Assembly (NCBI GenBank): GCA_003663345.1
Contig: QMZU01000004.1
Span: 1 to 17,224 of the forward strand
DNA from: Candidatus Aenigmatarchaeota archaeon
GTDB lineage: Archaea > Aenigmatarchaeota > Aenigmatarchaeia > PWEA01 > B50-G16
Length of the DNA stretch: 17,224 bases
Reading direction: 5' to 3'
The stretch's first letter is position 1; each line of letters opens with the position of its first letter. Of this stretch, positions 1,433-17,196 are shown in pieces. Under the pieces are notes generated by a model. The model did not search any database. It was not told the DNA's origin and was given only the letters and a program-made list of their open reading frames with translations. Position numbers and translations under genes: made by a program.

Positions 1433-2232
1433 AGACGGAAGTTCTCAAGAGGATTTTAATAGAGACAGATGCGGATAAATTACTCGACCTTGTGAACCAG
1501 AAGAAGAGGGTGACGGTGGAAGAGGCAGCCAAGATTTTGTCAGTGGAGCAGGATGTTGTGGAGAGGTGGGCAAAGATATTCGAGGAGCATCACCTCGTTT
1601 CATTAAATTATGGTCTCGGAGATATAACCATCAAAAAGAGAATCGATTCTGAATCCGAAAAAACAGCCAAGGAGATCGAGAACATACTCGGAAAGAAGTT
1701 CATTGAGAGCACTGAAAGGATAGATGAGGACATTGAGGATATTTTTCTCTATATTAAAAACTCCATGGAAGGGATAAAGAAGAAGGTTGATGATATAAAG
1801 AGTTCCATAGAGGAACTGGAGAAACTATCACCGGGCATCCGCAAGGGCATAAAGATGAGAAAGGTGAAGAAATCGATTAAAAGAGGACTTTCAGAGCTTG
1901 AGGATCTGAGGAAAGAGCTTGATGAGAAATCAAAGGTAATGAAGAGGTACGAAAAAGAAATCAAAGAATTGAATGAAAGCCTTCTGCAATTCTCCAAAGA
2001 CCTGACCCAACTCGAGGAAAAGGTAAAGGAGGGTGAGAGAAAGAAATCGTTCTTTGATTTTCTTTTTAAAAAAGAGAAAGAACCCGAAAAGAAGCCTGAA
2101 AAGAAGACCAAGAGAAAACACGAAACCAAGAAGAAATCCAAAGTCAAACCCCGGAAAAAATCCGCTAAGAAACCCAAGACAAAACACAGAACAAAGAGAA
2201 GGAGTGCCAGAAAGAAAAAGGTGAGAAAATGA
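1429..2232 (+). CDS. Unknown winged-helix, coiled-coil protein with Lys-rich tail, pilus operon
   Basis: This 267-residue protein starts at TTG 1429, whose last bases form the upstream stop (TTGA overlap); GAGAGG at 1415-1420 serves as ribosome binding site. Three zones are visible. Residues about 5-70 look like a winged helix-turn-helix (VTVEEAAKILSVEQDVVERW, then a wing-like GLGDITIKK). Residues about 75-205 are charged, heptad-like coiled coil without hydrophobic membrane segments. Residues about 206-267 are almost purely Lys/Arg with Pro, Thr and Ser. Position between a pilin-like protein and the motor ATPase, with 4-base overlaps on both sides, argues for a role in the pilus machine, perhaps a cytoplasmic scaffold or nucleic-acid-binding regulator. 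No function can be assigned. The tail could bind DNA, RNA or anionic membrane. A similar tail ends the second ATPase in this window (13660-15399). Confidence 0.85.
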   Translation: MKTEVLKRILIETDADKLLDLVNQKKRVTVEEAAKILSVEQDVVERWAKIFEEHHLVSLNYGLGDITIKKRIDSESEKTAKEIENILGKKFIESTERIDEDIEDIFLYIKNSMEGIKKKVDDIKSSIEELEKLSPGIRKGIKMRKVKKSIKRGLSELEDLRKELDEKSKVMKRYEKEIKELNESLLQFSKDLTQLEEKVKEGERKKSFFDFLFKKEKEPEKKPEKKTKRKHETKKKSKVKPRKKSAKKPKTKHRTKRRSARKKKVRK

Positions 2233-3791
2233 AAAATCTAATGAAGGAATATACGGTCACTGCTGACAATGTTGAGGCAACTGTGAAGATATTTCAGGAG
2301 CCTGCCGACTATGTCCCCACATACGGTCTCATCTTCCCGGAGATAAAATCCGCAACCGAGGCTGTTATGGACCAGATAAGGGACGAGCTCATAACCAAAC
2401 TGAAGATAACGGGCAGGGAGATTCTCGACCCGGAGGCCATGGAGAGGATAAAGAAGAATTTCATGGACATATCACAGGAACTGGTCAAGAAGTACCTCCC
2501 AAGCCTTGATAAGAAGAAGCAGATGAGCCTTGCCGGAAGACTGGTTCACCAGATGTTCGGTCTGGGAAAGATAGAACTTCTCCTTAAGGATGATGACCTG
2601 GAGGAGATAGTTATAAACAGCTCCAGGGAGCCTGTATGGGTTTACCACAAGGAGTTCGGATGGCTCAAAACCAACATAACTCTGAGGGACGAGGAGGAGA
2701 TATACAACTTCGCATCACAGATAGGCAGAAGGGTCGGAAGACAGATAACGAACCTCAACCCGCTGATGGATGCTCACCTCATCTCAGGCGACAGGGTGAA
2801 CGCAACCCTGTTCCCCATCTCAACTCAGGGGAATACTCTCACGATAAGGAAATTCGCCCGAAACCCGTGGACCATAATCCATTTCATAGACCCAAAGGTC
2901 AACACACTCTCAAAGGAGGTGGCAGCACTCCTCTGGCTTGCCATACAGTATGAGCTGAACATAATAATAGCTGGAGGTACAGCTTCTGGTAAGACCTCCC
3001 TTCTTAACGCCCTCACACCGTTCATGCCTCCGAACCACAGGATAATATCCATAGAGGATACGAGAGAGCTGCAGCTTCCGGACTTTCTCCACTGGGTTCC
3101 GATGACAACCAGGGAACCGAATCCTGAGGGCAAGGGCGAGGTCTCCATGCTCGAGTTAATGGTAAACAGCCTCAGGATGAGACCGGACAGAATCATAGTG
3201 GGTGAGATAAGGAGGCAGAGACAGGCCGAGGTTCTGTTCGAGGCGATGCACACGGGCCACTCCGTTTACTCAACCCTTCACGCAAACACCGCTGACGAGG
3301 TCAAGAGAAGGATGATAAATCCACCCATAAGTTTGCCACCAAGTATGCTGGAGGCGCTTCACCTCACGTGCATCCAGTTCAGGCACAGGAGGCTTGGTGT
3401 TAGAAGGACGTTCCAGCTGGCAGAAGTGATACCACAGATAACGAGAAGTGGTGAGGGGATGACCGTTGACATGAACGTCCTCTACAGGTGGAGCCCCAGA
3501 GAGGATAGGCTGATTCAGAGCAGGGATTCTGTGAGGATAATGGATGAGATACAGATGCACACAGGCATGTCCGAAAAGGAGATATTCGAAGACCTTCGTG
3601 AAAAACAAAGAATACTCCAGTGGATGCTGGAGAACAACATAAAAACGGTCAACACTGTTGGAAAGGTCATAGCGGACTACTACAAGGACAGGGAGATGGC
3701 ACTTGAAAGGGTAAGAAAGAACATGAAACCTAAGGACATATTCTCCCAGGAACTCCTGAATGAGATGAGGGCAAGGGGCTTAATAAAGTGA
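2229..3791 (+). CDS. Type IV pilus/secretion ATPase, archaeal GspE/TadA/ArlI family (system A)
   Basis: This 520-residue cytoplasmic hexameric ATPase powers assembly of type IV-like filaments. Visible motifs: Walker A GGTASGKTS at residues 249-257 (K255), Asp box SIEDTREL shortly after, Walker B-type RIIVGEIRR with E326, and the His box TGHSVYSTLHA. The N-terminal half (residues about 1-220) carries the family's N2-like domain, ending in the TLTIRKF strand. ATG 2229 overlaps the previous stop as ATGA, with GGTGA at 2220-2224. Two TadC-like genes follow directly, the expected order ATPase then platform. It differs clearly from the ATPase at 13660-15399: it lacks the long N-terminal extension and the Lys-rich tail. 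Assignment to the superfamily is firm. Whether it drives an adhesive pilus, a secretion device or another filament cannot be read from sequence. Confidence 0.95.
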   Translation: MKNLMKEYTVTADNVEATVKIFQEPADYVPTYGLIFPEIKSATEAVMDQIRDELITKLKITGREILDPEAMERIKKNFMDISQELVKKYLPSLDKKKQMSLAGRLVHQMFGLGKIELLLKDDDLEEIVINSSREPVWVYHKEFGWLKTNITLRDEEEIYNFASQIGRRVGRQITNLNPLMDAHLISGDRVNATLFPISTQGNTLTIRKFARNPWTIIHFIDPKVNTLSKEVAALLWLAIQYELNIIIAGGTASGKTSLLNALTPFMPPNHRIISIEDTRELQLPDFLHWVPMTTREPNPEGKGEVSMLELMVNSLRMRPDRIIVGEIRRQRQAEVLFEAMHTGHSVYSTLHANTADEVKRRMINPPISLPPSMLEALHLTCIQFRHRRLGVRRTFQLAEVIPQITRSGEGMTVDMNVLYRWSPREDRLIQSRDSVRIMDEIQMHTGMSEKEIFEDLREKQRILQWMLENNIKTVNTVGKVIADYYKDREMALERVRKNMKPKDIFSQELLNEMRARGLIK

Positions 3792-4675
3792 TGCTGATGG
3801 AGAAGAAACTCCCTTTAGTACCCTTTCCTATGGAGAAGACCAGAAAGATAGCGCACAGGTTTCTCGGTATCGGCAGCATCCTGGCAAAGATGCGACCCGG
3901 TCTGAAGAAGGACCTTTTTCAGAGCAAGATCGATATAGACCCTGTTGAGTATATGTCAATTGTCTTTTTCGTATCCCTATTTTACTCGTTACTCATCGGT
4001 TCAACCGTAACATTTCTTGGTTTGGTGGTCAGGGGCAGGATAGATATCATAGGTCCGATCGTTGGGCTGACTTTCTTTCTTATACCTTTCTATTATCTGA
4101 GTCTGTACCCGAAGGTCACCGCAAAGAAGAGGATAAAAACCCTTGAGAAGAACTTGTTATTCGCATTGAGACACATACTCATAGAGGTCAGGAGCGGGGT
4201 ACCCCTTTACAACGCTCTGGTGGGCGTTAGTGAAGGTTACGAGGAGCTTTCCGAGGAGTTCAAGCTCATAGTCAAGGATATAGCTGGAGGGAAGAAACAG
4301 ATAGAGGCGCTCGACAAGGGTGCTGAGAGAAATCCTTCCCTTTTCTTTCGCCGAGCTCTGTGGCAGCTTTCAAATGCTCTGAGGGCAGGAAGCGACATAG
4401 GCGATACACTTGAAGCGATAACCAACGATTTTGCCCAGAGACAGGCCAATGAGATAAGGAGATACGGTCAGGAGCTGAACCCATGGACCATGATATACAT
4501 GATAGTTGCTGTGATAATTCCCAGCCTTGGAATAACCTTCATGATAATCCTCACAACCTTTTCGGGCATACAGATACCCGACTTCACCTTCCCGCTGATA
4601 CTCCTGGGTCTGGGGCTGTTCCAGTTCTTCTTCATGGGTTTCATAAAGACGAAGAGACCTGCAATATCGGTGTGA
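3788..4675 (+). CDS. Membrane platform protein, TadC/GspF/ArlJ-like, first of pair (system A)
   Basis: This is a 295-residue polytopic membrane protein with the T2SSF layout: two hydrophobic segments (about residues 55-81 and 86-108), a cytoplasmic helical domain (about 110-230; NLLFALRHILIEVRSGVPL and the GSDIGDTLEAITNDFA region), then two more segments (233-258 and 267-286). Such platforms sit in the cytoplasmic membrane above the ATPase and transmit its motion to the pilin subunits. GTG 3788 overlaps the ATPase stop as GTGA, the same pattern as other joins in this operon; ATG 3791 or 3797 are alternatives that change little. It is followed after 3 bases by a second, different platform gene, so the platform is probably heteromeric. 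Confidence 0.9.
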   Translation: MMLMEKKLPLVPFPMEKTRKIAHRFLGIGSILAKMRPGLKKDLFQSKIDIDPVEYMSIVFFVSLFYSLLIGSTVTFLGLVVRGRIDIIGPIVGLTFFLIPFYYLSLYPKVTAKKRIKTLEKNLLFALRHILIEVRSGVPLYNALVGVSEGYEELSEEFKLIVKDIAGGKKQIEALDKGAERNPSLFFRRALWQLSNALRAGSDIGDTLEAITNDFAQRQANEIRRYGQELNPWTMIYMIVAVIIPSLGITFMIILTTFSGIQIPDFTFPLILLGLGLFQFFFMGFIKTKRPAISV

Positions 4676-4678
4676 TGC

Positions 4679-5671
4679 ATGAAAAAAATATACAAATTTG
4701 TCGGAAATGTTGTCCCTTACAAGGAGAAGATACGGGAGCAATTGGACTATGCTGGATTCGAGACAACACCGGCCGTAGAATTCTCCGGATTCATGTTCTT
4801 CTACGGATTATCAGCGGGTTTCCTCCTCTTCGGTCTCTTTACATTTCTTAACCTCAGCTTGCCCCTATCACTTCTGGGGTTTGCCATCGGTTTTCTGGGA
4901 CTCCAGGGTCTCATATATATGATACTTGTGATGATCGCTGATTCACGGGCCAATGAGGTTGATGAGATACTTCCCGATGCGCTTCAGCTCATGTCAGCGA
5001 ACATCAGAGCAGGGATGACAATGGACAGAGCTATATGGCTGGCAGCCCGTCCGGAGTTCGGACCGCTTGAGAGGGAGATTCACAGAGTCGGGGCAGAAGT
5101 TCTGGGCGGTAAGAGCATGGTCGAGGCCCTTGAGGGTATGAAGAAGAGAATAAACTCGGTCCTTCTCAGAAGAGCGCTCAAGCTTGTGGAAGAGGGGATA
5201 GAATCGGGTGGTGAGATGGGACACCTTCTTGACGAGACAGCTAACGACATAAGAACAGCAAAAGCGATGAAGGACCAGGTCAAGAGCAACGTGATGATGT
5301 ATTCCCTCTTCATAATATTCGCATCGGTGATAGGTGCACCTCTTCTCTTCGCTGTTTCCCTTTACTTTGTTGAAATAACCAACGAGCTCTGGTCACAGAC
5401 CATGCCAGGAACAGAAGATTTGTTCAATCAAATGGGCGGTCTGATAAAATTCGGAGGACCGCAGGTGGGTGTTGAAGAACTGCAACTGTTCGCAACAGCC
5501 ACCATCATACTCACAACCGTTTTCGGTTCCCTTATCATAGGTCTGATTCAGACAGGGAAAGAAAGGAACGGATTGAAGTACATGCCTTTCCTGACCGGCA
5601 CGGCCCTTGTAATATTTTTCGTAGCAAAGATCCTGATATCTTCTGTTCTGGGCTCTCTTGTAGGTTTCTAA
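4679..5671 (+). CDS. Membrane platform protein, TadC/GspF-like, second of pair (system A)
   Basis: This 330-residue protein has hydrophobic segments at about 35-57, 62-86, 207-230, 270-292 and 303-326. Between the second and third lies a cytoplasmic domain with the T2SSF signature region (DEILPDALQLMSANIRAGMT, then EEGIESGGEMGHLLDETAND). That GG-x-hydrophobic pattern is typical of TadC/TadB proteins. ATG 4679 lies 3 bases after the previous stop, with GGTG at 4669-4672. It is longer than the first platform protein and has extra C-terminal segments, as is common for the second member of archaeal platform pairs. It ends the co-translated run of system A; the following pilin gene has its own promoter. 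Confidence 0.9.
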   Translation: MKKIYKFVGNVVPYKEKIREQLDYAGFETTPAVEFSGFMFFYGLSAGFLLFGLFTFLNLSLPLSLLGFAIGFLGLQGLIYMILVMIADSRANEVDEILPDALQLMSANIRAGMTMDRAIWLAARPEFGPLEREIHRVGAEVLGGKSMVEALEGMKKRINSVLLRRALKLVEEGIESGGEMGHLLDETANDIRTAKAMKDQVKSNVMMYSLFIIFASVIGAPLLFAVSLYFVEITNELWSQTMPGTEDLFNQMGGLIKFGGPQVGVEELQLFATATIILTTVFGSLIIGLIQTGKERNGLKYMPFLTGTALVIFFVAKILISSVLGSLVGF

Positions 5672-5678
5672 ATGAAAG

Positions 5679-5687
5679 ATTTATAAA
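5679..5687 (+). promoter_or_regulatory. TATA box of the pilin gene
   Basis: ATTTATAAA with a purine-rich stretch just upstream (GAAAG) fits an archaeal TATA/BRE pair. A start about 25 bases downstream would leave a leader of roughly 10-15 bases carrying the AGGTGA site at 5709-5714. This lets the pilin be made in greater amounts than the machine genes before it. Confidence 0.6.
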
Positions 5688-5721
5688 GGAGTCGTCTCAA
5701 TTAAATTTAGGTGACCCTCAG

Positions 5722-6198
5722 ATGAAAGTTTTAAGAGGTTCAAAAGGACAGACAGCAATGGAATATCTGATGACATACGGATGGGCTATCCTGATAATAC
5801 TTGTAGTCGGTGGTGTTCTCTATTACTACGGAGTTTTCTCACCATCAACACTGGTAGGCGAGTCAAAGACAGGGTTCAGCAAAATAGATGTGGTCGACTG
5901 GCAGTGGAGGGCAAGTGATGATCACCTGCTCATAATGCTGGAGAACAGGGCAGGTGTAGACGTTAACGTTACATCGATAGTCGTTACATACGGGACAACC
6001 ACTTCAACCTATACGATACCGGGCGGTGAGTCCATATCTGCCGGTGACAGGAGCAGCTTCATAGATGCAACCACAACAGGAATCGATTTTGACTCAGGAG
6101 ATGCGTATCAGATTGATGTGACCATTAACTACTACAGGACCGATTCACCAGCAACAACACTTTCCAGCTCAGGAAGACTCTCAGGAAAGGCAGCTTAG
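5722..6198 (+). CDS. Type IV pilin, class III (archaeal) signal peptide
   Basis: This 158-residue pilin precursor has a textbook archaeal class III signal. A short basic leader ends in K8-G9, then Q10-T-A-M-E14: cleavage is expected between G9 and Q10, and Glu at +5 of the mature protein would pair with the incoming subunit. The hydrophobic assembly helix follows at about residues 15-38 (YLMTYGWAILIILVVGGVLY). The remainder is a Thr/Ser/Gly-rich beta-type headgroup with one NVT sequon. The start is ATG 5722 with AGGTGA at 5709-5714. Its own promoter and terminator indicate separate, probably high expression, as expected for a major subunit. It needs an EppA/PibD-type prepilin peptidase, which is not in this window. 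The neighbouring ATPase and platform genes (2229-5671) are the likely assembly machine. Confidence 0.95.
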   Translation: MKVLRGSKGQTAMEYLMTYGWAILIILVVGGVLYYYGVFSPSTLVGESKTGFSKIDVVDWQWRASDDHLLIMLENRAGVDVNVTSIVVTYGTTTSTYTIPGGESISAGDRSSFIDATTTGIDFDSGDAYQIDVTINYYRTDSPATTLSSSGRLSGKAA

Positions 6199-11835: not shown

Positions 11836-12963
11836 ATGACTCAATTCAAGGTAACGCCATGGGATGTCGAAGGGCTGGTTGATTACAAGAAACTAATAGA
11901 GATGTTCGGCACACAACCCATAGACCAGCCACTCTTGAAAAGAATTGAAAAGCATACAGGAGAGTTGCATGTTTTCCTCAGGCGAGGGTTCGCCTTTTCC
12001 CACAGGGACATGGATAAGGTTCTTGATGATTATGAGAAGGGGAAGGGCTTCTTTCTCTACACAGGAAGAGGTCCTTCAGGTAATATGACACTTGGACACC
12101 TCGTTCCTTTTCTCTTCACAAAATGGTTGCAGGATAAATTTGGTGTCAACCTCTACATCGAGATAACAGATGATGAGAAGTTTCTCGTAAAGGACCTGGA
12201 ATTGAACGAGGTCCAGAAGTATGCAGAGGACAACATTCTTGATATAGCAGCTGTGGGGTTTGACTCTGAGAAAACGTTCATTTTCCGGGACACGGAATAT
12301 ATCGCTCACATGTATGAGGATGCCATAAAGGTTGGTAAGAAGATAAACTTCTCGAATGTGAGAGCGGTTTTCGGCTTCACGAATCAGACCAATATTGGTA
12401 TGATATTCTATCCAACACTTCAGATAGTTCCAACACTCTTTGAAAAGAAGAGGTGCCTCATACCTGCAGCAATAGACCAAGACCCGTACTGGCGAGTCCA
12501 GAGGGACATTGCAGAATCCCTTGGATACCACAAGGCAGCTGCCATCCACACCAAGTTCCTCCCGAGCCTTCAGGGCCCTGCTGGTAAAATGAGCACCTCT
12601 GATCCACATACAGCTATATATCTCACTGATTCTCCGGAAGACGTGAGAAGAAAGATAATGAAATACGCTTTCTCCGGCGGTCAACCCACTGTTGAAGAAC
12701 ATAGAAAGAAAGGAGGGAACCCGGATGTGGATACCTCATTCCAGTGGCTCTATATTCTTTTTGAGGAGGATGACCAGAGAATAGAGGATATAAGAAACGA
12801 TTACATCTCCGGGAAACTCCTCACAGGTGAACTCAAGGAGATTCTAATAGAGAAACTCACCTCATTCCTGAAGGAACACCAGAAAAGAAAATGTAAAGCA
12901 GAGAGGGTTGCCAAAAAAATGAAATACACAGGAAAGTTGGCGAAGAGAATGTGGGAAAGATAA
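11836..12963 (+). CDS. trpS: Tryptophanyl-tRNA synthetase, archaeal/eukaryotic type
   Basis: This class I synthetase, 375 residues, charges tRNA-Trp. The archaeal/eukaryotic form is shown by an N-terminal extension (about 1-75), the PSGNMTLGHLVPF signature with T85-LGH88, AIDQDPYWR typical of TrpRS, and GKMSTSDPHTAI (K251-MSTS). The tail segment KYAFSGGQPTVEEHRKKGG is also diagnostic and separates it from the related TyrRS. ATG 11836 has AGGTG at 11826-11830. The TAA stop at 12961-12963 directly touches the encoded CCA end of the minus-strand tRNA-Tyr gene, so readthrough of trpS would produce RNA antisense to that tRNA. No terminator can be fitted between them. Confidence 0.97.
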   Translation: MTQFKVTPWDVEGLVDYKKLIEMFGTQPIDQPLLKRIEKHTGELHVFLRRGFAFSHRDMDKVLDDYEKGKGFFLYTGRGPSGNMTLGHLVPFLFTKWLQDKFGVNLYIEITDDEKFLVKDLELNEVQKYAEDNILDIAAVGFDSEKTFIFRDTEYIAHMYEDAIKVGKKINFSNVRAVFGFTNQTNIGMIFYPTLQIVPTLFEKKRCLIPAAIDQDPYWRVQRDIAESLGYHKAAAIHTKFLPSLQGPAGKMSTSDPHTAIYLTDSPEDVRRKIMKYAFSGGQPTVEEHRKKGGNPDVDTSFQWLYILFEEDDQRIEDIRNDYISGKLLTGELKEILIEKLTSFLKEHQKRKCKAERVAKKMKYTGKLAKRMWER

Positions 12964-12980
12964 TGGTCCGGGGAGCGCGA

Positions 12981-13035
12981 CTCCCAAACCCTTTGGTCCG
13001 GAAGGGTTGATAAGGGCGGGTGTGGCGCCCTTATT
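12981..13035 (-). other. tRNA-Tyr intron 2, 55 nt, non-canonical T-loop position 59/60
   Basis: Removing it restores a perfect 5-bp T stem and the loop TTCAAAT. The splice region fits two 3-base bulges, AAA (5' site) and AGT (3' site), around a 4-pair helix TTCA/TGGG with two G-U pairs. Instead of a simple inner helix the intron folds as two hairpins: ATAAGGGCG/CGCCCTTAT (13010-13034, 9 bp) and AACCCTT/AAGGGTT (12987-13008, 7 bp). This relaxed motif would need a broad-specificity splicing endonuclease. Confidence 0.82.
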
Positions 13036-13057
13036 TTTGAACGCGCGACCTGCCGGT

Positions 13058-13100
13058 TTCTTTAAGAGCAGCTGCTGGGATACAAGCGCAACAGCGCTTG
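13058..13100 (-). other. tRNA-Tyr intron 1, 43 nt, canonical position 37/38
   Basis: A bulge-helix-bulge can be drawn. The anticodon stem continues into a 4-pair helix of CTGT (32-35) with AAAG of the intron (one G·A mismatch). Three-base bulges AGC and AAA hold the two cuts, and an intron helix AAG/CTT extends beyond through two mismatches into GTTGC/GCAGC. An alternative hairpin CAAGCGC/GCGCTTG with loop TGTT competes within the intron. In other archaea and in eukaryotes a tRNA-Tyr intron here is common and can assist modification of position 35. Confidence 0.85.
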
Positions 13101-13136
13101 CTACAGCCGGCCGCTCTTCCGCTGAGCTACCCCCGG

Positions 13137-13390
13137 ATTCTATAATGATGTGATGGAGAAGATATTTAAAAATTAATGTGACTATTCACATTTTCTTTAT
13201 TCTTCTGTTCTTGTTAGGAAGACACCTAGAACATCTCTCTTGAAAAATCTAAGAGATACTTCTTCAGGGTAGCTATTTTTAAACTTTAAATAGTTTTCAA
13301 ACCCGCTAAATTTACGGTCATTAAGGTTATTGCATTGAAGGCAAGAACCTTTTTATTGAATTCTGAGGAAATTTAAATGGAGGTGAAGAG
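13137..13390. promoter_or_regulatory. 254-bp A+T-rich intergenic region with two outward promoters
   Basis: No gene is visible here. Toward the tRNA, the minus-strand TATA-like TTTTTAAATAT lies at 13162-13172. An exact inverted repeat AATGTGA-CTAT-TCACATT spans 13175-13192, followed by a T-rich run on the plus strand; it could be an operator for the tRNA promoter or a plus-strand terminator for trpS readthrough. A looser repeat CTATTT...AAATAG lies at 13273-13293. Toward eS26, TTTTTATT at 13350-13357 is the best TATA box, and GGAGGTGA at 13379-13386 is a full-strength ribosome binding site four bases before ATG 13391. Confidence 0.5.
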
Positions 13391-13663
13391 ATGCCGGTTA
13401 GCAAGGCACCATACAAGCGTGGCTACCATCAGACCAAGGGAAAGGGCAGACAGAGTGTTGTCACCTGCAGTATGTGCGGCTCCAAAGTGCCGAGATTTAA
13501 AACATTTACCAGAAGTTCGGGATTCCGAATCACCGATTCCACAATATTAAAGAGCACCGACAGAAGGAACATCCACACCTTTTCAAGAAAACAGTACATC
13601 TGTCCAAAATGCGCGAGGTTCTACGGTGTGGTTGAGAAACGGAAGAACAGAAGGTATGTATGA
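13391..13663 (+). CDS. rps26e: Small-subunit ribosomal protein eS26
   Basis: This 90-residue, very basic protein has a four-cysteine zinc ribbon: C26-x2-C29 (VTCSMCGSKVP) and C71-x2-C74 (YICPKCARFYG). A basic, glycine-containing N-terminus and an Arg/Lys-rich end (VVEKRKNRRYV) flank it. The order KG-x-G then VTC-x2-CG-x2-VP-x2-K, and the later C-x2-CA before a basic tail, matches eS26 as I know it from eukaryotes and TACK archaea. eS26 sits near the mRNA exit and the 3' end of 16S rRNA. Its ribosome binding site, GGAGGTGA, is the strongest in the window. The last bases overlap the start of a secretion ATPase (ATGA), an unusual partner. Other zinc-ribbon ribosomal proteins fit less well. Confidence 0.78.
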   Translation: MPVSKAPYKRGYHQTKGKGRQSVVTCSMCGSKVPRFKTFTRSSGFRITDSTILKSTDRRNIHTFSRKQYICPKCARFYGVVEKRKNRRYV

Positions 13664-15399
13664 TGTGGAAGGATTTTTTGGAAAGAATCAGGAAGAATTT
13701 CCCCATCAGAAGGGGAATGCTCAGAGAGGTGCATAGAAAGAGGAGCAGAAAGGAGATAGAGGAACTGCTCGAGGAGATTCCGAAGTTTCGGGTTCATGAA
13801 CCGGAGCATCTGATAGTGATTCCACCGACAGATGACATTAGAAACGTTAATGTTCAGTATCCGCTTCTCGAACCCTATGCCTATGCGCATATAAAGTGGA
13901 GTGATGCCGAAGGAGAGCTGATATACAGGGTGGTGGAGCCGAAACTGAACGAGAAGGAGAAAAGAATATATCAGAAGGTCGTGAACGCACTGGTGGAACT
14001 GGTGGATGTTCAGCTCTCCACCATAAAGAACCCGAACCAGGCGATGGAGTATGTGGAGGAGAAGATAAAGGAAATCCTGAGTGAAATGGAGATAGACCTG
14101 AGCAGAACGGAGTTCTCAAAGATAATGTACTACATCTACAGGAACTTCGTTGGTCTTAACCGAATTGAGCCGCTGATGCATGACTCCTACATAGAGGATA
14201 TATCATGCGACGGTATAGAGGTTCCTGTGTACGTTGTCCACAAAAGGTTCGGATCACTCCAGACCAATATAGTGTACAGAGATGAGGAGGAATTGAGGGA
14301 TTTTGTTGTGAAGCTGGCTGAGAGAGCCGGTAGATATATATCTTATGCTGAGCCGCTCCTTGACGGGTCATTACCTGACGGGACAAGGGTTCAGGCAACC
14401 CTGGCAAAGGATGTGACCACAAGAGGACCGACCTTCTCCTTAAGAAAGTTCACAGAAGAGCCCTTCTCACCGGTTGATATGATAAAACTCCACACCGCCT
14501 CTTCGGAGATGATGGCATACCTTTGGTTCCTGATAGAAAACGGCGTCTCGCTTCTGATATGCGGGGGTGTTGCAACAGGAAAAACCTCGCTTCTCAATGC
14601 CATAAGCCTCTTCATACCACCTGAGGCGAAAATAATCTCCATTGAAGATACCAGAGAGCTGAACCTGCCGCACGATAACTGGATACCGGCTGTGGCGCGC
14701 TTGGGTTTCGGAACACCAACAGCTGCCGGAACCAAGTACGGTGAGGTGAGGATGTTCGACCTTCTCAAGGACAGTTTCAGGCAGAATCCTGACTACGTCA
14801 TAATCGGAGAGGTGAGAGGCGAGGAAGCATATGTCATGTTCCAGGGAATGGCCTCAGGTCACCCATCAATGGGAACCATGCACGCAAGAGGCGTCAAAAC
14901 CGTTATAAAAAGACTACAGACACCACCGATACAACTCCCACCCGCTCTCGTTGAGATTCTTGATATCGTTATAACAATGACCCATGCCCGTGAGAAGGGG
15001 AAGAGCGCGCGAAGGATAGAGAGTATAACCGAGATAGTTTCGGTCGACCCTGATACGGGTGATGCCAAGACCAATGTCGTGTTCGAGTGGCTTCCAAGAG
15101 AGGATAAGTTCGTGAGAGGGAAGGGCAACTGGGTCCTGCAGAAGATAAGCAGGGGAAAAGGCATAAGGATGTCTGAAATAAAGAAAGAGCTTGAAAACAG
15201 GGAGAAGGTTCTGGAGTGGTTACTTAAAAAAGGCGTGACCGACTGGAAGAGCGTCGCTGAAATAGTCGGTGAGTATCACCGGAACCCACAATCGGTAATG
15301 AAGAGAATTGGTGTAAGAACTTCAAAGAAGACTTCCAAGAAAACCAAAAAATCCACCGCATCCAAGAAACCAAAGGTTCATAAGTCCAGGAAACGTTAG
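13660..15399 (+). CDS. Type IV pilus/secretion ATPase, archaeal GspE/PilB-like family (system B)
   Basis: This is a 579-residue motor ATPase, second of its kind in the window. Motifs: Walker A GGVATGKTS (302-310; K308), Asp box SIEDTREL, Walker B-type YVIIGEVRG with E384, and His box SGHPSMGTMHA. It has a longer N-terminal part than the ATPase at 2229-3791 (HEPEHLIVIPPTDD and an IKWSDAEGELIYRVVEP strand region) and ends in a Lys/Thr/Ser-rich tail (about residues 550-579). ATG 13660 overlaps the eS26 stop as ATGA, with AAGGT shortly before; ATG 13663 is an alternative. Two platform genes follow. The tail recalls the Lys-rich end of the unknown protein at 1429-2232 and may contact membrane, nucleic acid or a partner. 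That is inference. Confidence 0.95.
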   Translation: MMWKDFLERIRKNFPIRRGMLREVHRKRSRKEIEELLEEIPKFRVHEPEHLIVIPPTDDIRNVNVQYPLLEPYAYAHIKWSDAEGELIYRVVEPKLNEKEKRIYQKVVNALVELVDVQLSTIKNPNQAMEYVEEKIKEILSEMEIDLSRTEFSKIMYYIYRNFVGLNRIEPLMHDSYIEDISCDGIEVPVYVVHKRFGSLQTNIVYRDEEELRDFVVKLAERAGRYISYAEPLLDGSLPDGTRVQATLAKDVTTRGPTFSLRKFTEEPFSPVDMIKLHTASSEMMAYLWFLIENGVSLLICGGVATGKTSLLNAISLFIPPEAKIISIEDTRELNLPHDNWIPAVARLGFGTPTAAGTKYGEVRMFDLLKDSFRQNPDYVIIGEVRGEEAYVMFQGMASGHPSMGTMHARGVKTVIKRLQTPPIQLPPALVEILDIVITMTHAREKGKSARRIESITEIVSVDPDTGDAKTNVVFEWLPREDKFVRGKGNWVLQKISRGKGIRMSEIKKELENREKVLEWLLKKGVTDWKSVAEIVGEYHRNPQSVMKRIGVRTSKKTSKKTKKSTASKKPKVHKSRKR

Positions 15400-15406
15400 A
15401 ATAAAT

Positions 15407-16282
15407 ATGCGCTCTCTGAAGAGAATAGCTGTCAAATGCTGTGGAGGTCTTGCTGACAGGTATTCCGAATTCTTCAAGCCCTTGAGGTCGCCACTTGAAA
15501 GAGGACATTTGAAAATACTCTTCAGAACCTATGTGAGCATAATATTCTTCTTCACAATCCTCTCATCCATATCAGGTGGTTTAATATTATTTCTCTTCTT
15601 CCTCCTTCAGGGCGAAAGCCTTCTCACGTCCCTCATTTATCTCTTTGCGGGTATGGTTATATCCGCAGCCATATCCTTCACTGTCCTTTACCTCTATCCC
15701 ATACAGAGGGCAGCCGAGCGCAAGAAAAGCATAGAGAACAACCTCCCATTTGCGCTGAACCATATGGCTGCTATCGCTTCATCAGGTGTCCCACCATATG
15801 TCATATTCAAACTCCTCACAGGTTTTGAAGAGTATGGTGAGATAAGCAAGGAGGCGGAGAGGATAGTCAGGAATGTGGATACTTTTGGCCAGGACATAAC
15901 CACTGCGCTGCGGATGGCAGCAAAGAGAACACCCTCCCGAGAATTCCAGGAGCTTCTCAACGGCATGGTCTCGACAATCGAAACGGGCGGAAATTTGCAT
16001 GAATTTCTGAAGGTGCAGGCTCAGCAGGCACTCTTCGATTTCCGTTTAAAGAGAGAAAGGTATCTTGAAACACTTTCAACATATGCGGACTTCTACACAG
16101 CCGTGATGATAGCAGCGCCACTTTTCTTGGTCGCTCTCCTTGCAATAATGAACATGATAGGCGGGCAGATAGGAGGGATGAGTATAAAGGATGTTATGGA
16201 GATAGGTATATATGCGGTCATACCTCTAACAAATACAGCGTTCATACTCTTCGTTCACTTAACGCAGCCGGAGCAGGTGTGA
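15407..16282 (+). CDS. Membrane platform protein, TadC/GspF-like, first of pair (system B)
   Basis: This 291-residue protein has hydrophobic segments at about 42-67, 72-97, 224-250 and 264-286, with a cytoplasmic domain between (NNLPFALNHMAAIASSGVPP, then STIETGGNLHEFLKVQAQQA). This is the T2SSF arrangement, and it matches the first platform protein of system A (3788-4675) in layout. It begins 8 bases after the ATPase stop. No convincing ribosome binding site precedes ATG 15407, so translation may depend on ribosomes arriving from the ATPase gene. Two adjacent cysteines near the N-terminus (11-12) are unusual for a cytoplasmic segment and have no obvious role. Confidence 0.9.
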   Translation: MRSLKRIAVKCCGGLADRYSEFFKPLRSPLERGHLKILFRTYVSIIFFFTILSSISGGLILFLFFLLQGESLLTSLIYLFAGMVISAAISFTVLYLYPIQRAAERKKSIENNLPFALNHMAAIASSGVPPYVIFKLLTGFEEYGEISKEAERIVRNVDTFGQDITTALRMAAKRTPSREFQELLNGMVSTIETGGNLHEFLKVQAQQALFDFRLKRERYLETLSTYADFYTAVMIAAPLFLVALLAIMNMIGGQIGGMSIKDVMEIGIYAVIPLTNTAFILFVHLTQPEQV

Positions 16283-16284
16283 AT

Positions 16285-17196
16285 ATGGGAATAATTGAAT
16301 GGATGACAAAGAGTCAGGAGAGGGAGATAATGCTACTCGTCTCCGCAGCCGGAGGGATAACGGTATTTCTGGTGAGCTTCTTCCTCTTCTACGAGGATTC
16401 CAGCCTCTTCACGCTTCTGAACCTGATTGGTGTGGTCATAATTTTCGGGCCATCCCTCATGATAAAGTTCACGGAATACCAGAGAAGAAAGGAGATGGAG
16501 GAGCGCTTTCCGGAATTCCTCAGGAATGTTGTGGAAGGAACAAGGTCCGGGATGACACTGCCACAGGCGCTCAAAAACGCAGCCCGTGGAGAGTATGGAG
16601 TCCTCACACCTTATGTGAAGAAGATGGCTGCGCAGATAGATTGGGGGATACCCTTTGATGATGTCCTGAGAAGCTTTGCCAACCAGATTGGAAGCAACAC
16701 CCTCAAGAGGGTCGTTTCTACCATAATAGAGACACACAGAAGCGGTGGAAACATTTCGGGTGTTCTCGAGGCAGTGAGCCAGAGTGTGGTGGAGGTCGAG
16801 AGGGTCAAGAAGGAGCGCTCCTCACACGTCTACAGTCAGATGATCACGGGATACACAATCTTCTTCATCTTCTTGGGTGTGATGATAGGTCTGCAGGTAT
16901 TCCTCATACCGTCACTCTCGTTTCAGAGAACTGCAGGCACAGAAGGTCTTTCCATTGGAGGCGCAACCAGCCAGGAACTGGTCGAACTCTATAACACCAT
17001 GTTCCAGAGATTGATAATAATACAGGGCGCTTTCTCAGGCCTTGCAATAGGAAAGATGGCAGAAGGAACCATAATGGCTGGGTTAAAACACAGCATGATT
17101 CTGATACTCCTCGGTTACTCCCTCTTCCTGATAGTCCCGGGTCTGCTGGGCGGGTCCGCTCTTGATCTGCTCGGGTTCGGGGCTATTGGGGGGTAA
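16285..17196 (+). CDS. Membrane platform protein, TadC/GspF-like, second of pair (system B)
   Basis: This 303-residue protein has hydrophobic segments at about 14-35, 41-62, 188-210, 242-262 and 268-290. The cytoplasmic domain holds the TadC-type signature (ERFPEFLRNVVEGTRSGMTL, then ETHRSGGNISGVLEAVSQSV). The end is glycine-rich. I chose ATG 16285 because AGGTG at 16275-16279 lies five bases upstream; GTG 16279, overlapping the previous stop as GTGA with GGAG before it, is nearly as good and adds two residues. It closes the visible part of system B. No pilin follows within the remaining 28 bases, which are A+T-rich and without a clear terminator. Confidence 0.9.
   Translation: MGIIEWMTKSQEREIMLLVSAAGGITVFLVSFFLFYEDSSLFTLLNLIGVVIIFGPSLMIKFTEYQRRKEMEERFPEFLRNVVEGTRSGMTLPQALKNAARGEYGVLTPYVKKMAAQIDWGIPFDDVLRSFANQIGSNTLKRVVSTIIETHRSGGNISGVLEAVSQSVVEVERVKKERSSHVYSQMITGYTIFFIFLGVMIGLQVFLIPSLSFQRTAGTEGLSIGGATSQELVELYNTMFQRLIIIQGAFSGLAIGKMAEGTIMAGLKHSMILILLGYSLFLIVPGLLGGSALDLLGFGAIGG

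What the first reader, a model, noticed from the sequence alone, without database searches (positions are those of the whole stretch)
12964..13136. tRNA-Tyr gene interrupted twice, including a T-loop intron at 59/60
Every arm of the tRNA pairs only if two segments are removed. The second, 55 nt long, splits the T-loop; its removal restores TTCAAAT and a perfect GCGCG/CGCGC stem. Non-canonical and multiple tRNA introns are best known from Thermoproteales, so finding them beside DPANN-like or other deep-lineage features is notable. It predicts a broad-specificity splicing endonuclease in this organism.
Basis: partly seen in the sequence, partly recalled or inferred. Interest (0 to 1): 0.75.

Follow-up and report, generated by a model that had tools for sequence, protein, structure and literature searches.

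The report
Twice-split tRNA-Tyr carrying a mobile intron
A tyrosine tRNA gene of a tiny uncultured archaeon is interrupted twice, and the intron in its T-loop turns out to be one copy of a small intron family found in many tRNA genes of this and a few related species, sometimes in flipped orientation.

Summary
On the minus strand, 13136-12964 is a tRNA-Tyr(GUA) gene with encoded CCA, a 43-nt intron at 37/38 and a 55-nt intron at 59/60; removing both gives a clean tRNA-Tyr. It is not isolated. All 14 tRNA genes that I rebuilt in this 74%-complete Aenigmatarchaeota-like genome are interrupted (29 introns; 11 of 14 have a T-loop intron, 8 of 11 without three found through the intron itself). The Tyr T-loop intron belongs to a family present in T-loops of 8 tRNA genes here and in 4 other of 156 phylum genomes, but at E <= 0.001 in none of the 13 other genomes of its order. 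In two genomes it runs in the opposite orientation. T-loop introns share one bulge-helix-bulge geometry with exon-intron covariation. The only splicing endonuclease found is one alpha-type gene: no beta gene, no ASL-like insertion, alanine in place of the catalytic lysine. The kind is known (Thermoproteales tRNA introns); the lineage, patchy spread, flipped copies and enzyme appear new. There are no RNA data.

The parts
12964..13136 (-). tRNA-Tyr(GUA) gene with two introns and encoded CCA
13101..13136 (-). exon 1, tRNA positions 1-37
13058..13100 (-). intron 1, 43 nt, position 37/38; match to the shared helix rule is 3 of 4 pairs (AAAG against CTGT)
   Evidence: pairing read by eye
13036..13057 (-). 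exon 2, positions 38-59 (anticodon stem 3' strand, variable loop, T stem 5' strand, TTCAAA)
12981..13035 (-). intron 2, 55 nt, position 59/60, member of the repeated intron family
13010..13034 (-). intron 2 hairpin 1, ATAAGGGCG...CGCCCTTAT
   Evidence: C-G to A-T compensatory change in other copies
12987..13008 (-). intron 2 hairpin 2, AACCCTTCC...AAAGGGTT
   Evidence: fold, limits read by eye
13038..13041 (-). exon strand of the BHB helix, T54 T55 C56 A57
12983..12986 (-). intron strand of the BHB helix, TGGG, two nucleotides before the 3' splice site
12964..12980 (-). exon 3, positions 60-76 with CCA
13163..13170 (-). TATA-like box TTTAAATA, 27-34 nt upstream of nt 1

Best explanation
This is a working tRNA-Tyr gene with two archaeal protein-spliced introns. 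The transcript folds so that four exon nucleotides before each 5' splice site (32-35, and T54-R57) pair with four intron nucleotides lying two bases before the 3' splice site, giving a three-nucleotide bulge at each cut. The single alpha-type splicing endonuclease, presumably as a homotetramer, cuts in both bulges, and RtcB joins the exons. The 59/60 intron is one copy of a small mobile intron family that spreads between tRNA genes and between species, probably as DNA, because copies sit in both orientations. Shown by sequence: gene anatomy, repeated family, orientation, junction geometry at 59/60, endonuclease and ligase genes. Inferred: splicing itself, enzyme assembly, the route of spread.
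For: In-silico splicing gives a tRNA call for 14 of 14 genes built by hand, 0 of 14 unspliced under default settings; the anticodon is as I assigned it in 11 of 14. Tyr introns at both sites in G000, G001, G003, G010. Of 44 T-loop introns, 20 have full 4/4 pairing with T54-R57 at exactly offset 2, against 0-3 at each of eight other offsets, and a mean of 1.0 and maximum of 6 in 1000 shuffles. Exon base 57 covaries with its intron partner: A57 with T 13, C 3; G57 with T 2, C 10; Fisher P 0.0016, on 28 of 44. Tyr intron 93% identical to the Thr intron; 8 T-loop copies in the genome; 5 of 156 phylum genomes carry the family; shuffled control 0 hits. At 37/38 the Tyr introns of G001, G003 and G010 fit the same rule 4/4, the own one 3/4 (by eye and 46 output). 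Endonuclease and RtcB genes. TATA box.
Against: No RNA evidence. For Tyr alone the unconstrained fold (-32.1 kcal/mol) keeps hairpin 2 longer instead of forming the BHB helix (-26.2), and two of its four helix pairs are G-U. In the own genome only 1 of 8 parsed T-loop introns has 4/4 pairing, six have 3 and one has 2. In the covariation test 16 of 44 introns have neither T nor C at the partner base, and related introns are treated as independent. RtcB is cut by a contig end, and none was found in G010. The enzyme lacks the usual catalytic lysine. The MAG is incomplete.
Confidence: 0.85

Rival explanations
1. The two introns are real, but the family resemblance reflects old vertical inheritance plus gene conversion among tRNA genes, not mobility between species.
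For: Related introns recur at the same site in many tRNAs of one genome, as conversion would give; G001 and G010 (same family f2) share other intron sequences. One closer relative, G008, has a weak 28-29-nt match to the core (E 0.014, 0.008), which could be a decayed copy or chance.
Against: None of the 13 other genomes of the same order has the family at E <= 0.001, while four genomes of other families do, with cores up to 97% identical over 36 nt; copies in G022 and G117 are in the opposite orientation.
Confidence: 0.2
2. The gene is a dead tRNA-Tyr copy broken by insertions, and a functional tRNA-Tyr lies in the missing quarter of the genome.
For: The MAG is 74% complete.
Against: All stems are intact after splicing, CCA and a TATA box are present, relatives have introns at the same two sites, and every other tRNA gene rebuilt in this genome is also interrupted.
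Confidence: 0.04
3. The T-loop insert is a DNA transposon remnant (MITE-like) that hit T-loops by chance and is not spliced.
For: Hairpin-rich, repeated, in both orientations, tandem in G022.
Against: All 8 copies found in the own genome lie at the same place of tRNA T-loops, with junction pairing and exon-intron covariation across the T-loop intron set; if unspliced, the cells would lack most of the tRNAs seen.
Confidence: 0.05

Closest known systems
Multiple, transposed tRNA introns of Thermoproteales (Sugahara 2008; Fujishima 2010, known to me only through passages of PMC4090602 and PMC4033280)
   Same: Several introns per tRNA, non-canonical sites, near-identical introns in different tRNA genes
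   Different: Different phylum; here copies of one family occur in both orientations and in several families of a class; no beta subunit or ASL-like loop was detected in the enzyme
Intron-rich tRNA sets of Atabeyarchaeia and Freyarchaeia (PMC11291895, passages)
   Same: 92-95% of tRNA genes with introns, often non-canonical, over half with several
   Different: Asgard archaea; the passages read describe no repeated intron family
Nanoarchaeum equitans and Nst1
   Same: DPANN; endonuclease alpha subunit similar; for Nst1 no beta gene was identified
   Different: N. equitans has alpha plus beta; Nst1 has only two tRNA introns (PMC3655853, passages)
ARMAN-2 epsilon2 endonuclease (PMC12397907: abstract, sections 4 and 15, passages)
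   Same: DPANN enzyme that accepts relaxed motifs
   Different: Three-unit protein with the ASL insertion and catalytic Lys282; the enzyme here has neither. G022, another carrier of the intron family, does have an ARMAN-like enzyme with an insertion and the lysine

Membership tests
Archaeal BHB tRNA introns | Removal restores a cloverleaf | tested here: met
Archaeal BHB tRNA introns | Bulge-helix-bulge at the splice sites | tested here: met
   Met for the set of 44 T-loop introns; for the Tyr 59/60 intron alone 4/4 pairs with two G-U, and not the minimum-energy fold; for its 37/38 intron 3/4 pairs by eye
Archaeal BHB tRNA introns | Splicing endonuclease and RtcB ligase in the genome | tested here: met
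   (RtcB truncated by contig end)
Archaeal BHB tRNA introns | Spliced tRNA and circular intron in RNA | not testable with these tools
   no RNA data
Transposed tRNA introns of the Thermoproteales kind | Similar introns in different tRNA genes of one genome | tested here: met
Transposed tRNA introns of the Thermoproteales kind | Host is a member of Thermoproteales | tested here: not met
   nearest named endonuclease and trpS relatives are Aenigmatarchaeota
Broad-specificity endonuclease types, (alpha beta)2 or epsilon2 | Beta subunit or three-unit protein | tested here: not met
   single 181-aa gene; a beta profile finds the alpha gene and no beta gene in 8 of 8 genomes of f1-f4; in G000 it also gave one E 0.096 match inside a 777-aa frame, taken as chance
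Broad-specificity endonuclease types, (alpha beta)2 or epsilon2 | CSL or ASL insertion with lysine near the active site | tested here: inconclusive
   no insertion after the YG motif relative to M. jannaschii, where ARMAN-2 has one, so no ASL; no crenarchaeal sequence was in that alignment, so CSL was not compared directly
Alpha4 endonuclease | Single one-unit alpha gene | tested here: met
   tetramer not testable
Alpha4 endonuclease | Catalytic Tyr-His-Lys | tested here: not met
   Tyr111 and His127 kept, Lys replaced by Ala158
Group I intron in tRNA | Catalytic core recognised by Rfam | tested here: not met
   no such match in the window at E <= 1; 55 nt is too short

The most novel reading that the evidence does not exclude
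The 59/60 intron is a horizontally mobile genetic element of about 50 nt with no protein of its own, whose home is the tRNA T-loop. Because the bulge-helix-bulge is two-fold symmetric and the intron's 3' end is complementary to the T-loop, an inserted copy carrying T-loop sequence can splice in either orientation. In the present lineage it thrives with a one-subunit endonuclease that works with a rebuilt active site (no classical lysine) and tolerates introns at many sites, against the view that alpha4 enzymes cut only canonical introns.
Probability: 0.35. Interest if true: 0.87.

Novelty: new variant of a known kind. Interest (0 to 1): 0.72.

Why it matters
How archaeal tRNA introns are gained is an open question: large-scale transposition was inferred in Thermoproteales, with mechanism unknown (PMC4090602, passages). 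Flipped copies of one intron family at the same tRNA site in different species argue for a DNA step and give concrete junctions to test. The enzyme side challenges the proposed link between endonuclease type and intron diversity. Practically, the tools run here miss most of these tRNA genes (RF00005: 3 matches at E <= 0.001 in the whole own genome; ARAGORN default: 0 of 14 unspliced genes; tRNAscan-SE was not available), so tRNA-based completeness and codon statements about such archaea need care.

Tried and rejected
ARAGORN on the window and on the unspliced Tyr gene, with and without introns allowed: nothing. Rfam on the window: one sub-threshold C/D-box match, taken as chance. A group I intron was considered and rejected (length). 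A viral or plasmid source: a 17-letter core pattern in viral contigs gave 7 hits whose surroundings do not resemble the intron; no match in phage or plasmid records at E <= 0.01. Spread beyond the phylum: 0 of 35 archaeal genomes behind my trpS loci, some of which may be of the same phylum (35 of 80 loci given). That tool warns that an empty answer without a positive control shows nothing; the same query did match G000 and G022. Contamination of G022 by the own genome: rejected, because the G022 tRNAs read have other exons, no encoded CCA where I could see the end, and the element in reverse orientation. Literature: PMC searches 'tRNA intron' + 'Aenigmarchaeota' (3 papers, none on the subject by title), 'tRNA' + 'multiple introns' + 'DPANN' (1, Asgard), 'DPANN' + 'tRNA genes' + 'introns' + 'splicing' (2, listing), 'Aenigmatarchaeota' + 'tRNA' + 'introns' (1, Asgard), 'tRNA introns' + 'archaeal' + 'inverted orientation' (0). 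Subscription papers are not held, so absence is only within this library. No structure prediction was run.

Rows dropped: five of 14 pattern hits in the own genome (C20, C22, C35, C43:355, C49) gave no tRNA and were dropped as chance (reversed-pattern control 7 hits). Val-CAC (L004, T-loop intron running off the contig) and an odd tRNA-like hit (L002) were left out of the count of 14. One of 19 endonuclease loci (G015) was not recovered by my script and is missing from the alignment of 18. For Leu-TAA (C115) ARAGORN also called a tRNA on the opposite strand of the joined exons.

Full report
What is there. The window is contig C4 of a 951,466-base, 183-contig assembly, 74% complete. Its endonuclease has 75% and 74% identical relatives named Candidatus Aenigmatarchaeota/Aenigmarchaeota, and the closest trpS relatives include Aenigmarchaeota MAGs at 65-67%, so I call it Aenigmatarchaeota-like. 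The finding lies on the minus strand, 13136-12964, tail to tail with a gene I read by eye as tryptophanyl-tRNA synthetase (11836-12963); the stop codon TAA directly abuts the tRNA's encoded CCA.

Anatomy. Exon 1 is 13136-13101, intron 1 13100-13058 (43 nt), exon 2 13057-13036, intron 2 13035-12981 (55 nt), exon 3 12980-12964. The joined exons give C1-G72 and A73 (recalled as archaeal tRNA-Tyr marks), anticodon GTA, T loop TTCAAAT and a perfect T stem. ARAGORN finds tRNA-Tyr(gta) in the joined exons and nothing in the gene as it stands. A TTTAAATA box lies 27-34 nt upstream.

The whole genome is like this. RF00005 finds 3 matches at E <= 0.001 and 7 at E <= 10 in the whole genome. With an intron-aware search I rebuilt 14 tRNA genes by hand: Tyr, Thr-CGT, Ala-GGC, Leu-TAA (two), Arg-GCG, Arg-TCT, Lys-TTT, Lys-CTT, Asp, Gly-GCC, Asn, Val-GAC, Ile-TAT. 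All 14 are interrupted, with 29 introns between them, and 11 of 14 have a T-loop intron. ARAGORN finds a tRNA in 14 of 14 after joining and 0 of 14 before; with introns allowed it called 3 of 14, all with a wrong identity. In 11 of 14 the anticodon is the one I assigned; Lys-TTT and Asp came out with a one-base-long loop and Ala as Pro-TGG, which I put down to a boundary chosen one base off. Three of the 14 (Ala, the C29 Leu, Arg-GCG) were found only through the intron search, which favours T-loop introns; without them it is 8 of 11.

Relatives. RF00005 matches at E <= 0.1: 5-11 in G001, G003, G005, G006, G008 and G010, 17 in G002 (families f2-f4 of the same order), 29 and 30 in G004 and G009 (f5), 16 in G014 and 41 in G020 (other families of the class). 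The tRNA-Tyr genes of G001, G010 and G003 have both the 37/38 and the 59/60 intron (G003 also one in the D-loop); those of four f5 genomes have the 37/38 intron only. Automated parsing gave 15 tRNAs in G003 (10 with T-loop introns, none intronless) and 14 in G010 (8 with T-loop introns, 3 intronless). These are samples from pattern and RF00005 hits, not full sets.

A repeated intron. A 72-nt query (Tyr intron 2 with T stem) matched 8 tRNA T-loops in the own genome: Tyr, Thr-CGT, Ala-GGC, Leu, Arg-GCG, Lys-TTT, Asp, Gly-GCC, besides one 14-nt match at E 0.7 taken as chance. Tyr and Thr introns are 93% identical over 55 nt. Arg-TCT and Lys-CTT introns look like a second related pair (by eye). 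Across the phylum 5 of 156 genomes match at E <= 0.001: G000, G022, G043, G117 and G136; the other 13 genomes of the own order do not, though G008 has a weak 28-29-nt match (E 0.014). In G043 the core sits in two T-loops and in the anticodon-loop intron of one of those tRNAs, in G136 in two T-loops, in G117 in an anticodon-loop intron (the first G043 site and G117 by eye). In G022 it sits at seven places, all T-loops by eye (one of them cut by a contig end); two of them, His-GTG and Gly-TCC, were confirmed as full cloverleaves.

Orientation. In G000, G043 and G136 the element runs with the tRNA; in G022 (7 of 7 places) and G117 (1 of 1) it runs against it, and 6 of the 7 G022 places hold two or three units in a row (read by eye). 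Intron-against-intron BLAST gives the same: minus-strand matches between G022 introns and those of G000, G043 and G136. Hairpin 1 shows a compensatory C-G to A-T change, seen in G000 Ala, G043 and G022 copies; a palindrome kept at DNA level would show the same. My inference: the intron's 3' end must be complementary to the T-loop, so a copy that carries T-loop sequence and is inserted backwards brings its own matching strand. RNA-level reverse splicing alone would not flip an intron.

Junction geometry. If the 59/60 introns are BHB substrates, four intron bases just before a two-base bulge should pair with T54-R57. Of all 44 T-loop introns the finder returned (not hand-curated), 20 pair 4/4 at exactly that offset (mean 3.39 of 4); eight other offsets give 0-3 each, and 1000 shuffles give a mean of 1.0 and a maximum of 6. 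Base 57 covaries with its partner: A57 faces T 13 times and C 3 times, G57 faces T 2 and C 10, P 0.0016; the other 16 of 44 face A or G. Related introns are not independent, so the P value is only a guide. In the own genome the fit is weaker: 1 of 8 is 4/4 (Tyr), six are 3/4, one is 2/4. For Tyr the free fold prefers another pairing by about 6 kcal/mol. So 59/60 is a relaxed motif here. At 37/38 the Tyr introns of G001, G003 and G010 fit the same rule 4/4 and the own one 3/4, by eye and without a statistical test.

Enzyme. One endonuclease gene was found (L008 381-926, 181 aa). It aligns nearly end to end with the M. jannaschii enzyme and over most of the N. equitans alpha subunit. A beta profile from G017, G024 and G030 finds beta genes there, but in the 8 genomes of f1-f4 tested, two of them single contigs, it finds the alpha gene and no beta gene; in G000 there was also one E 0.096 match inside a 777-aa frame, taken as chance. 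After the YG motif, where ARMAN-2 carries the ASL, there is no insertion relative to M. jannaschii; no crenarchaeal sequence was in that alignment, so a CSL was not compared directly. A lysine-rich stretch before the catalytic histidine is six residues longer than in M. jannaschii and is also present in N. equitans alpha. The catalytic lysine (K282 in ARMAN-2, K287 in A. fulgidus; PMC12397907 passages) is replaced by Ala, Thr or Ser in 17 of 18 sequences of the phylum aligned, while Tyr and His remain; the exception is G022, a carrier of the same intron family, whose ARMAN-like enzyme has the lysine and an insertion. Reviews tie broad specificity to (alpha beta)2 and epsilon2 enzymes with special loops (PMC6379350 passages) and to a loop-bearing alpha2 type in Korarchaeota, and call the alpha4 type able to cut only canonical introns (PMC4033280 passages). 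Either the enzymes of f1-f4 break that rule or a partner is missing from the data. The enzyme type does not by itself predict intron load: G020, with a single alpha-type match, has 41 RF00005 matches. RtcB is present, truncated by a contig end; it is present in G003 and G022 and was not found in G010.

Verdict. The kind, archaeal BHB tRNA introns with transposition, is known. New to my knowledge, and not found in the searches listed in Tried and rejected, are its scale in this lineage, a 59/60 intron family with patchy presence across families, flipped copies, and a lone alpha-type enzyme without the classical lysine.

Noticed in passing
L008:381-926 and relatives: Splicing endonucleases of this phylum lack the catalytic lysine in 17 of 18 sequences aligned; a lysine in EHTK, two residues after the catalytic histidine, is conserved in those 17.
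   Followed up: partly
L167 (G010:C1:218800-221300): Three intronless tRNA genes without CCA (Ser-CGA, Val-CAC, Val-GAC) stand together in a genome whose other 11 parsed tRNAs are all interrupted; Val-CAC exists twice. Possibly a foreign element.
   Followed up: no
L001:1501-1608 and L002:1501-1608: A Leu-TAA gene without CCA on a 3.3-kb contig and an odd tRNA-like match; the other 13 own-genome tRNA genes I rebuilt encode CCA.
   Followed up: no
L005 from 352 (Gly-GCC); L210 (G043): Copies of the intron family with a further sequence nested inside.
   Followed up: partly
G001, G003 and G010 introns: Other intron families recur between D-loop and T-loop sites and between genomes, e.g. G001 Asp T-loop against G010 Met D-loop, 85% over 59 nt.
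   Followed up: partly
window 2229-6198 and 13660-17196: Two gene clusters that look, from the translations alone, like type IV pilus or archaellum secretion ATPases with membrane partners, the first with a pilin-like protein (5722-6198).
   Followed up: no
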